Assembly: GCA_023379825.1 (NCBI GenBank)
Contig: JAMCPQ010000049.1
Coordinates: 1 to 37,451, forward strand
Origin: Thermoplasmatota archaeon
GTDB taxonomy: Archaea; Thermoplasmatota; Thermoplasmata; Thermoplasmatales; Thermoplasmataceae
Direction of reading: 5' to 3'
Length of the DNA stretch: 37,451 nt
Shown here: piece after piece, positions 8,082 to 35,271 of the stretch
How positions within the stretch are numbered: the stretch's first letter is position 1
Layout of the letters: every line of letters starts with the position of its first letter
Program-made: the position numbers and the translations under genes
The notes under the pieces: model-generated
What the model was told of the DNA's origin: nothing
Seen by the model: the letters and a program-made list of their open reading frames with translations, nothing else
Database searches by the model: none

Positions 8082-9011
8082 CTATTCCATTCCAGGAATA
8101 CCAAGGGATTTGCTTATCTCCTTATATCTGTTCCTTATTGTTACCTCAGTCACACCGGACACTCTGGCAATCTCTTTCTGAGTCCTTGGTTTTCCAACCA
8201 TAACTGATGCGATATATATGGAGGCAGCTGCTACTCCTGTGGGGCCTTTTCCAGAGGAAATGCCTAGTTCAATTGATTTTCGTACAATGTCTTCACTCAC
8301 GATAATGGCCTGCTTATCCAGATCCAGCTTGCTACAGAACTGAGCAACATATGAATAGGGAGTAGTGGGTTTTAGATTGAGGCTGAGCTCCTTTGCAAGA
8401 TGCCTGTAGGCTTTTCCTATCTTTTTCTTGTTGACTTCAGAGGCTTTTGATATTTCATCCAGGGTCCTTGGTAGATTAACCATTCTGCAAGCCGCATAGA
8501 TGGATGCACATACTATGCTTTCAATGCTTCTCCCTCTGATCAGATTCTTTTCAACTGCTCTTCTGTATATAAGTGCCGCAGTTTCCTTAATATCCTTCGG
8601 GATACCAAGTTTTGCTCCGTTATCGTTCAGCATCTGCAATGCCAGAGAAAGGTTTCTCTCCGCTGCATTGCTTACACGAATCCTCTGATGCCATTTTCTC
8701 ACTCTATAAATCTGTGCCCTGTTCTTGTGTGGGATACGCTTACCATAATAATCCTTATTTGACCATGAAATCTCAGTTGCCAGACCTTTATCATGGCTCA
8801 AAAACGTCATTGGAGAACCAGTCCTTGCCCTTCTATCATCCTGCTCAGAATCAAAGGCACGCCACTCAGGTCCCTGGTCAATAAAAGAATCCTCCAGGAC
8901 CATTCCACAGTCGTTACAAATCAATTCCCCCCTTTCATAATCCCTAATCAAATGTTCTGAGCTGCACTCAGGGCATTTTTTGGTAATGTCATGATCAATA
9001 TTCGGAGCCAT
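8082..9011 (-). CDS. tfb: Transcription initiation factor TFB (paralogue 1)
   Basis: A 309-residue archaeal TFIIB. The N-terminal zinc ribbon has Cys13, Cys16, Cys32 and Cys35 (CPEC...CNDC), followed by the B-reader/linker segment [23 protein letters not shown]. Two cyclin-like repeats follow (about 105-200 and 205-300), ending in the BRE-contacting helix-turn-helix [23 protein letters not shown]. It bridges TBP-TATA and RNA polymerase. It is co-oriented with guaA (4-nt gap) and divergent from a second TFB preceded by gar1. Linker and recognition helix are nearly the same in both paralogues, so promoter preference is probably similar; differences lie in the cyclin repeats. A GGTGT ribosome site lies just before the ATG. 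Confidence 0.97.
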
Positions 9012-9701: not shown

Positions 9702-10664
9702 ATGTCTGGTGAAATTGAGAAGAATGAAAAGAAGAAGGATATAGAAGAGATAGATAAGTGCCCGGAATGCGGTTCCACACAGTTAGTAAGAGACTACGAG
9801 AGGGGTGAGCTGATATGCAACAACTGCGGCCTTGTAATCGATGACAGTTTCATAGATCAGGGTCCCGAATGGAGAGCATTCGACTCAGAGCAGTCAGAAT
9901 CAAGAGCCAGAACAGGATCCCCAATGACTTTCACCATTCATGATAAGGGATTATCCACCGATATTTCCTGGAAGAACAAGGACTCGTATGGAAAATCTAT
10001 TCCTACAAGAAACAGAGCACAGCTCTACAGATTAAGGAAGTGGCAGAAGAGAATCAAGGTATCCAACGCTGCGGAAAGAAATCTGTCCCAGGCTCTTCAG
10101 GAGCTTGAGAGAATGGCTTCAAATCTAAGCATCCCAAACGATGTAAGGGAGACTGCTGCAGTCATATACAGAAAGGCTGTCAAACAGAACATGATCAGGG
10201 GAAGGAGTATCGAGGGAGTTGTCGCAGGATCCATATACGCAGCCTGCAGAATCACCAATGTACCCAGAACTCTTGATGAGATTGCATCCGTTACCAGAGT
10301 CAAGAAGAAGGAGATTGGCAGAACCTACAGAATAATGAGCAGGTTCCTCAAACTGAACATTATGCCATCAAAACCTGATGACTATGTGAACAGGTTCTGC
10401 AGCAAACTCAAACTGTCTATGGAGGCAAGGAAGAGGGCCACAGAGATACTTAAGATGGCTCAGGAGCATGACCTCACATCGGGAAAGGGTCCAACAGGTG
10501 TAGCTGCTGCAGCAATATATATAGCATCTCTGCTCACAGAGGAGAGAAGAACTCAGAGATCAGTTGCAGAAGTGGCAGGAGTAACAGAAGTTACTATCAG
10601 AAACAGATACAAGGAACTTACTGAGAAACTATCACTGAAGATGGAGGGGGAACCTCCACTATAA
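9702..10664 (+). CDS. tfb: Transcription initiation factor TFB (paralogue 2)
   Basis: A 320-residue TFIIB with an acidic/basic N-terminal tail before the zinc ribbon (Cys20, Cys23, Cys39, Cys42). The conserved [13 protein letters not shown] linker and two cyclin repeats follow. The final [26 protein letters not shown] should contact the BRE. Within the gar1 end, GGAGGTG precedes the ATG at optimal spacing, so translation is coupled to gar1. Compared with paralogue 1, the linker through residue about 120 is highly similar, while the helices of both repeats differ more. This suggests an old duplication kept for separate roles. Its 3' end overlaps the convergent pcc1 gene by 6 bp and contains a stem followed by a T8 run. 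Confidence 0.97.
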
Positions 10665-32983: not shown

Positions 32984-33382
32984 TCAGACAGGGTTATTGG
33001 GCAGGGAGGCCCTTACTCTGTTCTTCTTCCATGATGCTGCCATAAGCCCTCCCAGAAAGCATAGCACGAAGCCGATGGTGAATCCGCCCTCTGTGCCTAT
33101 CCAGCTAAGCAGGGAAAAAACCACAATTATGACACCAAATATTCTGGTCCATCTGGTTCCGAACATCACTATGATGCTTGAGGCGGTCAGAACCGATCCC
33201 CAGACTGCTCCCAGAAAAAGGGCAATGTGCTCTGCGGAGGTTATTCCTGTAAGGGTACCGGATATGATTATGCTTCTCACACCAACATATAGTATGAGAA
33301 GGCTACCCAGAAGTGAAACTATTCCGGAATCTATAGGAGAATCTTTAAAACTGAACCTTGACACAGAGGGTAATTTCCTCAA
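32984..33382 (-). CDS. Small membrane protein, about four helices
   Basis: A 132-residue protein with around four hydrophobic segments (IVSLLGSLLILYVGV, IALFLGAVWGSVLTASSIIVMF, IFGVIIVVFSLLSWIG and FTIGFVLCFLGGLMAA) and a basic C-terminal tail (WKKNRVRASLPNNP). There is no signal peptide and no catalytic motif; I do not recognise the family. It lies downstream of the archaellin gene on the same strand, but a strong hairpin separates them, so co-expression is doubtful. Confidence 0.65.
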   Translation of the reverse strand: MRKLPSVSRFSFKDSPIDSGIVSLLGSLLILYVGVRSIIISGTLTGITSAEHIALFLGAVWGSVLTASSIIVMFGTRWTRIFGVIIVVFSLLSWIGTEGGFTIGFVLCFLGGLMAASWKKNRVRASLPNNPV

Positions 33383-33459: not shown

Positions 33460-34185
33460 CTAGTTCTGCAGCGTGACAACACTTGAGGTGAAGGCGATCG
33501 GTGCCGTGAAGTCTATCTGTGAAGTAGCTCCGACTTCAGGGGTGATCTGCCCTGACACCTGCATGTTCTGGGTTATATTGCTACCGAAGGTGTTGGTAAC
33601 ATTGAGGACTATTGCAGCCTCGTCACCGGCCGATATGACCGGGTATTTTGCTGTCAGTGAAGATGTGGGGTCAATCAGAGAAAGAACACCGAAGTTCGTC
33701 GGGTTGTTCTTCTTTGCGCTCATGTTTGCAAATACAGGGTCACTGAACAGGTTCTTTGTACCTGTTTTGGAAAGGTTGCTGAACAGTGAGCTGTTGTAAA
33801 CCAGCAGTGCAGTTGCACCATTTATGGAAAGAGTAAGACTGGTGTTAGCCAGGTCAATGGCGTTTCCTCCGGCATTATCCTGCAGCATTATTGCCACATA
33901 TTCCACTCCCCCGCTCTCAGGTGGATTTCCAAGATCAAATCCGTAAATGGAGTTTATGATAAGTCCTGTGGATACCTGGTTCGTTGTGGTTGTTCCAGTC
34001 GCATCGGCCCTCTGCTGCAGTATTCCGGCCGTATGTATGAGAACAGATGCAGCCACTGCTGCTACAAGTACCAGTGCAATGAAAATGATCAGGACACCTA
34101 TTCCGCTCTCGGCTTTCTCATCCTCATTGAACTTGAACTGCCTGCTGATATTCTTGAACAGATACCTCAAACCTTTCATCATCAT
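33460..34185 (-). CDS. arlB: Archaellin (archaeal flagellin)
   Basis: A 241-residue major filament protein from the ATG at 34185. It has a class III (prepilin-like) signal: a basic leader ending NEDEKAE, then [34 protein letters not shown], the conserved archaellin core helix. The peptidase ArlK/FlaK would cut near KAE/SGIG. The rest is a beta-rich outer domain with at least six N-x-S/T sequons (NTS, NSS, NLS, NMS, NVT, NIT), indicating N-glycosylation. AAGGTG lies nine bases before the ATG; the track's GTG start is part of that ribosome site and is rejected. No other arl genes are in the window. Confidence 0.93.
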
Positions 34186-34240
34186 GATAGTTAACACCTT
34201 ATGCAGTTCTGTAACTGTTTATGTATATCACTATGTCTGT

Positions 34241-34248
34241 ATATAAAA
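34241..34248 (-). promoter_or_regulatory. TATA box of the archaellin gene
   Basis: Minus-strand ttttatat lies in aaggtttttatatacag. Transcription starting about 25 bp downstream gives a leader of roughly 30 nt carrying the AAGGTG ribosome site. This fits a highly expressed, leadered gene. Confidence 0.55.
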
Positions 34249-34404
34249 ACCTTAACGCTGGGAACGAATTAATTTCGCATTTCGCAGCACAGTCATGGTT
34301 TGCTCTACATACATAACTAAAGGCTTCCGGTATGCATCATTTAATATGGTATTTCCAGCAAAAAAAGGATATGTTCCAGGTAAGGTATTGAACTTCTGAT
34401 GTGA

Positions 34405-35271
34405 ATGCTAAGCACAGATGACAAGAGATTCATAGTGAAAAGTGTGGAGAATGGTTACAAGATAAGCGACCTGGCAAGGATGTTCAACGTAACGCCAAGA
34501 CGGGTACAGCAGATACTGAAGGAGGACACATCCGATCAGTCAATGAGGCGCAAGACGGTGAATCTGTCCAGGGAGGAGATGGAGAACATAGAAAATCTGT
34601 GGACAAACTACAAGATCGGTTCCAGGACCATATACTACCTGATGAAGAACCAGGGAAAACAGGTCTCCTATTACCAGATTTACAATTTCATGAGAAACAG
34701 GAACATGATAAAGAGCAAGGACTCCAGGATAAGAGGAGAAACAGAGCAGCAGATAGAATCTCCCCTTTCAACAGTTTATATGGACTATCACCAGACAAGC
34801 ACTGAGTCACCATATGCAGTTGTCTGTGTTGATATGAGCACAAAGAAAATCCTCTCTATAGTGGAATCCAGGAAAATCACAAAGGAAGTAATGGAGCAGG
34901 TTGCTGATAATGTGTTCAAGTTCTCCACGGAGAAGGGCCTGTCAGTCAAGAAACTGTATCTGAGAAACGGAATTCTGAGCATACTTTATGGTGCAACAGA
35001 TCTGAAATACCATATGAAAAGGAAGGGTTTCGACGAGGTAGAGCAGGACAAGCATGGAAACAGGGTTCACCTTGCCCTATCAAGACTGTGGCAGAACTAT
35101 GACAGGTTCAGATGGAACACAGACAGCCCCGAGAAGTTCATGTACTGGTATAACCAGAGGCCGATAATAAACAGAAAGGAGAATCGAGTTACAACGCCAA
35201 ATGAGTTGATGGATGAGATGATAAATACAACCAACACAGTCATATCTCACGGTTCAGGAATATTCAGCTGA
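34405..35271 (+). CDS. Integrase-fold protein lacking DDE catalytic acids
   Basis: A 288-residue protein. Residues about 5-40 are a helix-turn-helix (YKISDLARMFNVTPRRVQQILKE), with a second helical DNA-binding region to about 100. Residues 120-270 follow the rve integrase core: STVYMDYHQTS (first acid Asp127), YAVVCVDMSTKKILSIV, LYLRNGILS where a xSDNG motif is expected, GNRVHLALSRLWQNY where NxRVExFxxxLK is expected, and the end YNQRPIINRKENRVTTPNELM. Spacing is exactly D-60-x-35-x, but the second and third positions are Arg187 and His222. It therefore looks catalytically dead. No terminal inverted repeats were found. It is likely a domesticated transposase acting as a DNA-binding protein, next to the archaellin gene. 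Confidence 0.75.
   Translation: MLSTDDKRFIVKSVENGYKISDLARMFNVTPRRVQQILKEDTSDQSMRRKTVNLSREEMENIENLWTNYKIGSRTIYYLMKNQGKQVSYYQIYNFMRNRNMIKSKDSRIRGETEQQIESPLSTVYMDYHQTSTESPYAVVCVDMSTKKILSIVESRKITKEVMEQVADNVFKFSTEKGLSVKKLYLRNGILSILYGATDLKYHMKRKGFDEVEQDKHGNRVHLALSRLWQNYDRFRWNTDSPEKFMYWYNQRPIINRKENRVTTPNELMDEMINTTNTVISHGSGIFS

What the first reader, a model, noticed from the sequence alone, without database searches (positions are those of the whole stretch)
34405..35271. Domesticated integrase with two of three DDE residues replaced at exact positions
The D-60-x-35-x spacing of the integrase core is preserved, but the second acid is Arg187 (YLRNG for xSDNG) and the third is His222 (GNRVHLAL for xxRVExF). 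The frame is intact, an HTH is retained, and no terminal repeats are visible. Exact spacing with lost catalysis suggests selection for DNA binding rather than decay. It adjoins the archaellin gene, divergently, so it might regulate motility.
Basis: partly seen in the sequence, partly recalled or inferred. Interest (0 to 1): 0.6.

Follow-up and report, generated by a model that had tools for sequence, protein, structure and literature searches.

The report
Dead integrase paired with archaellin gene
In swimming Thermoplasma-type archaea, a transposon enzyme that has lost its cutting site has been kept for a very long time beside one gene for the swimming filament, and it most likely works as a DNA-binding switch for that gene.

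Summary
ORF 34405-35271 is a distant relative of IS481 integrases. Its first catalytic Asp (D127) is kept, and the second is Arg187 in all 16 family members aligned. One correction: the third catalytic column is Ser226, not His222. Eight relatives with an intact catalytic site have E at the S226 column and N at the H222 column. The gene is single copy, under strong purifying selection, and has no conserved terminal repeats.
It is tied to the archaellum: of 35 near-complete genomes of the archaeal family, 14 have both integrase and archaellin and 21 have neither. At every intact locus it is divergent to a second archaellin gene (arlB2).
Two promoter results are new. The integrase promoter has the architecture of the main arl operon promoter: ACCTACAY boxes on a 12-bp pitch before an A-rich BRE, the EarA signature. 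The arlB2 promoter instead carries a conserved inverted repeat (CGAAA-TTTCG) 18-19 bp from its TATA box, found exactly only here in six genomes searched.
Best reading: an exapted, catalytically dead integrase, expressed with the arl operon, acting as a transcription factor (probably activator) of arlB2. DNA binding is inferred, not shown.

The parts
34405..35271 (+). Catalytically dead IS481-like integrase, 288 aa, single copy
   Evidence: intact frame; one copy in own genome; NCBIfam IS481 E=7.5e-10, below cut-off; Foldseek IstA/retroviral integrase; conserved in 24 of 77 family genomes
34405..34707 (+). N-terminal tandem HTH region (residues 1-101); lower dN than the core in most close pairs
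   Evidence: HTH_28/HTH_23 at 7-39 and HTH_21 at 57-101, sub-threshold but recurrent (HTH_23 in 14 of 14 members, HTH_21 in 7); dN by region
34762..35160 (+). RNase H-like integrase core (residues 120-252)
   Evidence: alignment to catalytically intact relatives; predicted strands and helices in the integrase order
34783..34785 (+). D127, first catalytic Asp, retained
   Evidence: D in 16/16 family and 8/8 intact relatives
34963..34965 (+). R187 at the second catalytic Asp column
   Evidence: R in 16/16 family, D in 8/8 intact relatives
35080..35082 (+). S226 at the third catalytic Glu column (corrects H222)
   Evidence: S in 16/16 family, E in 8/8 intact relatives
35068..35070 (+). H222, invariant in the family but not the catalytic column; Asn in intact relatives
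33460..34197 (-). Second archaellin gene (arlB2), divergent partner
   Evidence: PF01917 E=1e-35; NCBIfam flagellin 1.8e-66; adjacent at every intact integrase locus
32984..33382 (-). DUF6114 small membrane protein following arlB2, conserved third gene
   Evidence: PF19609 E=1.5e-10; cluster cl3 in nearly all relatives
34254..34278 (.). Conserved inverted-repeat element AACGCTGGGAACGAATTAATTTCGC, proposed operator of arlB2
   Evidence: footprint in 17 loci, 18-19 bp from the arlB2 TATA box, exact form found only here in six genomes
34240..34246 (-). arlB2 TATA box (TATATAA in + reading)
   Evidence: TAT(A/T)TAA in all 17 aligned intergenic regions
34305..34316 (+). EarA-type box(es) CTACATACATAA of the integrase promoter
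   Evidence: genome-wide pattern hit; promoter model trained on arl operon promoters
34358..34366 (+). A-rich BRE (GCAAAAAAA) of the integrase promoter
   Evidence: conserved in 17 loci; same as arl operon promoters

Best explanation
An IS481-like integrase was captured in an ancestor of this Thermoplasmatales family, lost two of its three catalytic residues (D to R187, E to S226), and became a host DNA-binding regulator of the archaellum. Mechanism: an arl-type activator (EarA, or something reading the same ACCTACAY boxes and weak A-rich BRE) turns on the main arl operon and the integrase gene together. The integrase protein, through its N-terminal HTHs and its inert RNase H-fold core, then binds the CGAAA-TTTCG inverted repeat just upstream of the BRE/TATA of the divergent arlB2 gene and sets, most likely activates, expression of this second archaellin. 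Shown: homology, loss of the acids, single copy, purifying selection, co-occurrence, synteny, shared promoter architecture, conserved repeat. Inferred: DNA binding, that the repeat is its site, the sign of regulation, and the identity of the upstream activator.
For: Catalytic columns D/R/S invariant in 16/16 family members against D/D/E in 8/8 relatives. Integrase fold. dN/dS 0.01-0.06 for close orthologous pairs with dS 0.24-1.6. In 35 near-complete genomes of the family, 14 have both integrase and archaellin, 21 neither, none discordant; 9 of 19 genera. Of the five incomplete genomes with an archaellin but no full integrase, four lack the arlB2 locus and in one the integrase is cut by the contig end. 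Divergent integrase/arlB2 pair at all intact loci. Integrase distances track ArlI (r=0.92), i.e. vertical descent. A promoter model built only from arl operon promoters ranks arlB1 and integrase genes as the top 24 of 497 genes. In arl promoters 25 of 28 TACA words share one 12-bp phase. Element at fixed position upstream of the arlB2 TATA in all 17 loci; its long form is found exactly only at this locus in six genomes.
Against: No DNA-binding or expression data. The AlphaFold model is of modest confidence (mean pLDDT 63) and HTH matches are below Pfam cut-offs. The inverted repeat varies in spacing and its T. volcanium-type form is imperfect. arl-bearing genomes of a sister family (f5) lack both the integrase and the TACA arrays, so the integrase could instead be the protein that reads the TACA arrays. 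A genome of T. acidophilum size has an in-frame stop in this gene.
Confidence: 0.66

Rival explanations
1. The dead integrase is the master archaellum activator of this family: it, not an EarA, binds the 12-bp phased ACCTACAY arrays at the arl operon and at its own promoter.
For: The arrays and the integrase are both present in this family and both absent in the arl-bearing genomes of sister family f5 that were examined; arrays occur only at the arl operon and at the integrase gene among 497 genes scored.
Against: The same motif, A(C/G)(C/G)TACA(T/C) near a BRE with 7-8 adenines, is the described EarA signature in Thermococcales and Methanococcus (PMC10665913, PMC5512572). An HTH 'transcriptional activator of archaellum' is reported for the related E-plasma (PMC10354927), though its identity was not checked here.
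Confidence: 0.17
2. The protein represses arlB2 (archaellin switching) rather than activating it.
For: Phage-encoded dead TnpB proteins (TldR) next to flagellin genes repress the host flagellin (PMC13418256); divergent regulators are often repressors.
Against: The element lies upstream of the BRE/TATA (18-19 bp away), the usual archaeal activator position (stated in PMC5512572), not over the TATA or start site.
Confidence: 0.2
3. A decaying or recently inserted transposon that happens to lie beside archaellin.
For: IS481 ancestry; in-frame stop in one genome.
Against: Invariant replaced residues, dN/dS near 0.03, 9 genera, conserved synteny, single copy, no conserved terminal repeats, shared arl promoter.
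Confidence: 0.01
4. An archaellum-linked non-regulatory role, such as chromosome architecture or DNA handling at the arl loci.
For: Core residues such as R187, H222 and S226 are as invariant as the HTH region, more than a DNA anchor alone would need.
Against: A conserved element next to the arlB2 promoter and promoter sharing with arl point to regulation.
Confidence: 0.1

Closest known systems
IS481 family transposase (NCBIfam NF033577)
   Same: HTHs at the N-terminus, RNase H-like core, WYN-RP tail; E=7.5e-10 for this protein, 2e-37 and 6.5e-49 for two catalytically intact relatives
   Different: Two of three acids replaced, single copy, no terminal repeats, far below the family cut-off (38.8 vs 224 bits)
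TldR, TnpB-derived nuclease-dead repressors beside flagellin genes (PMC13418256)
   Same: A dead mobile-element enzyme genetically tied to a flagellar filament gene
   Different: TldR is RNA-guided, RuvC-based and phage-borne; this is a DDE-type integrase, chromosomal and archaeal, with no guide RNA evident
EarA, euryarchaeal archaellum regulator A (PMC10665913, PMC5512572)
   Same: HTH regulator logic, archaellum promoter, weak A-rich BRE; the integrase gene itself carries EarA-type boxes
   Different: EarA is a winged-HTH protein and activates the arl operon; this protein has an integrase core and sits at arlB2
ArnR/ArnR1 of Sulfolobus (PMC4307647)
   Same: Regulator acting on one archaellin promoter and not on the motor operon; inverted repeats essential in that promoter
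CsmR of Haloferax (PMC13286277)
   Same: Lineage-specific archaellum regulator encoded next to archaellin genes and co-occurring with them
   Different: 13-kDa winged helix protein, not transposon derived

Membership tests
IS481 transposase (active mobile element) | Catalytic D, D, E triad | tested here: not met
   D127 kept; R187 and S226 at the other two columns, 16/16
IS481 transposase (active mobile element) | Score above the curated family cut-off | tested here: not met
   38.8 bits against 224
IS481 transposase (active mobile element) | Terminal inverted repeats flanking the gene | tested here: not met
   one 10-bp flanking pair, not conserved in the sister genome
IS481 transposase (active mobile element) | More than one copy, or variable position | tested here: not met
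   single copy; same neighbour in all relatives
IS481-derived fold (homology) | HTH plus retroviral-integrase-type core | tested here: met
Domesticated transposase | Purifying selection, vertical descent, conserved locus | tested here: met
   dN/dS 0.01-0.06; r=0.92 with ArlI distances; synteny
Transcription factor | Sequence-specific DNA binding at a target promoter | not testable with these tools
   candidate operator only
EarA regulon member (the integrase gene) | EarA-type boxes before an A-rich BRE | tested here: met
EarA regulon member (the integrase gene) | An EarA protein present in the same genomes | not tested
   no EarA reference sequence or profile was at hand; none evident beside the arl operon

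The most novel reading that the evidence does not exclude
A DDE-type integrase, catalytically dead, was exapted once as a dedicated regulator of the second archaellin in a two-step archaellum cascade (EarA-type activator to integrase to arlB2): an archaeal counterpart, from a different transposon class, of the dead TnpB proteins that control bacterial flagellin.
Probability: 0.5. Interest if true: 0.8.

Novelty: new variant of a known kind. Interest (0 to 1): 0.66.

Why it matters
In the papers searched here no archaellum regulator of the Thermoplasmatales is characterised. This gives a concrete candidate in cultured organisms (Thermoplasma), with a defined target site and testable predictions. 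It would be a clear case of a DDE integrase turned into a prokaryotic transcription factor. Together with TldR it would show that swimming-filament genes have recruited dead transposon enzymes more than once, in both prokaryotic domains.

Tried and rejected
His222 as third catalytic residue: rejected by alignment to eight intact relatives. Recent insertion: rejected (single copy, synteny, selection). The 10-bp flanking inverted repeat as a terminal repeat: rejected (right arm absent in the sister genome; left arm overlaps the start codon). Sequence search against PDB: no meaningful hit. Plasmid collection: no match. rve Pfam model in the own genome: no hit, so no rve-type element was found there. 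Short form of the repeat searched genome-wide in the other genomes: too degenerate at 3 mismatches to list a regulon, though exact hits in genus g17 fall only at this locus. Looking for EarA near the arl operon: no obvious candidate. HTH residue 34 (V or I) varies together with the two forms of the repeat, but this is confounded with phylogeny and is not used as evidence.

Full report
What is there. The ORF at 34405-35271 encodes 288 aa, intact, and occurs once in its genome. Pfam gives only sub-threshold HTH matches. NCBIfam gives IS481 transposase at 7.5e-10, well under the cut-off. An AlphaFold model from six orthologs (mean pLDDT 63) finds IstA of IS21 (2e-9) and retroviral integrases as best structural matches. 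So the integrase ancestry holds by sequence and by fold.

Catalytic residues. A profile search in 400 genomes of the class found distant relatives (E down to 2.4e-27). Two of them tested here score as IS481 at 2e-37 and 6.5e-49. Aligning eight of these with 16 family members gives: D127 = D in all; R187 = D in all eight relatives; S226 = E in all eight; H222 = N in all eight. The anchor around the third column is strong (ERLW-EYDRHRW against SRLWQNYDRFRW). D127, D143, R187, H222 and S226 are invariant in the family down to 45% identity, which speaks for a maintained new role and against decay.

Selection and descent. Nei-Gojobori dN/dS is 0.014 (own genus, dS 1.5), 0.027 (dS 0.24), 0.012 (dS 1.2) and 0.045 (dS 0.96). 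It is low in both the HTH region and the integrase core (the script stopped on one pair with zero dS after these were printed, and high-dS pairs are near saturation). Integrase distances follow ArlI distances (r=0.92).

Link to the archaellum. In the 77 genomes of the family, 24 carry the gene and 29 an archaellin-family gene. In the 35 genomes at least 90% complete the two sets are identical (14 with both, 21 with neither; 9 of 19 genera). The five extra archaellin genomes are incomplete. Four of them have only arl operon genes and no arlB2 locus. In the fifth (G374) the integrase is cut off by the contig end. Thermoplasmatales lineages such as Picrophilus-Ferroplasma-Acidiplasma are reported to have lost archaella (PMC10354927), so the gene appears to be lost with them. 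Everywhere it is divergent to a second archaellin, arlB2, followed in nearly all genomes by a DUF6114 membrane protein. The main operon (arlB1 and arl motor genes) lies elsewhere in the genome.

Promoters. Upstream of arlB1 in 13 genomes there are ACCTACAY-type boxes. 25 of 28 TACA words lie in a single phase of a 12-bp period ending in (G/A)CAAAAAA. This is the described EarA signature: A(C/G)(C/G)TACA(T/C) and a BRE with 7-8 adenines (PMC10665913, PMC5512572). A model built from these promoters alone, scored on 497 genes of the fetched loci, put arlB1 and integrase genes in the top 24 places; no other gene reached them, and four further integrase genes scored lower but within the top 1% of background or close to it. 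The background is neighbouring genes, not whole genomes. A strict genome-wide pattern gave mostly arl and integrase promoter hits in arl-bearing genomes. arlB2 itself mostly does not score. Instead it has a conserved inverted repeat 18-19 bp from its TATA box in the 17 loci. The long form of the repeat, searched in eight genomes, has an exact match once in each of six, only here; the other two returned no match at this locus with that pattern.

How it most likely works. The integrase is co-expressed with the arl operon through EarA-type control and acts on arlB2 through the repeat. The position upstream of the BRE favours activation. The upstream protein is not proven: arl-bearing genomes of sister family f5 lack both the integrase and the arrays, so the integrase could itself read the arrays. 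Both readings make it an archaellum regulator.

Known relatives in function. ArnR acts on one archaellin promoter with inverted repeats (PMC4307647); CsmR co-occurs with archaellins (PMC13286277); TldR is a dead transposon nuclease tied to flagellin (PMC13418256). No paper was found that describes this gene. That is a statement about the library searched, not proof of novelty.

Identity of genomes. The sister genome G001 corresponds to Thermoplasmatales archaeon UBA447.

Noticed in passing
G134:C1:1460126-1460938 (L083): In a genome of the size of T. acidophilum the integrase frame is broken by an in-frame TAG after about codon 165, while the rest of the frame stays readable; truncated HTH protein, error, or loss in a laboratory strain.
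   Followed up: partly
arl operon promoters, L068-L080: ACCTACAY boxes sit on a strict 12-bp pitch upstream of an A-rich BRE, at 25, 37, 49, 61 or 73 bp from it; suggests tandem binding of an activator.
   Followed up: yes
window 32984-33382: A DUF6114 membrane protein gene follows arlB2 in nearly all relatives and may be an unrecognised archaellum-associated protein.
   Followed up: partly
window 8082-9011 (-) and 9702-10664 (+): Two transcription factor B paralogs lie about 700 bp apart, divergently oriented.
   Followed up: no
L085-L092 (sister family f5): Archaellin genes of the sister family have no TACA arrays or A-rich BRE and no integrase, so archaellum control seems to differ between sister families.
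   Followed up: partly
G007:C4:57849-58700 (L016-L018): Integrase and archaellin both appear frameshifted in this 50%-complete assembly, probably sequencing errors.
   Followed up: partly
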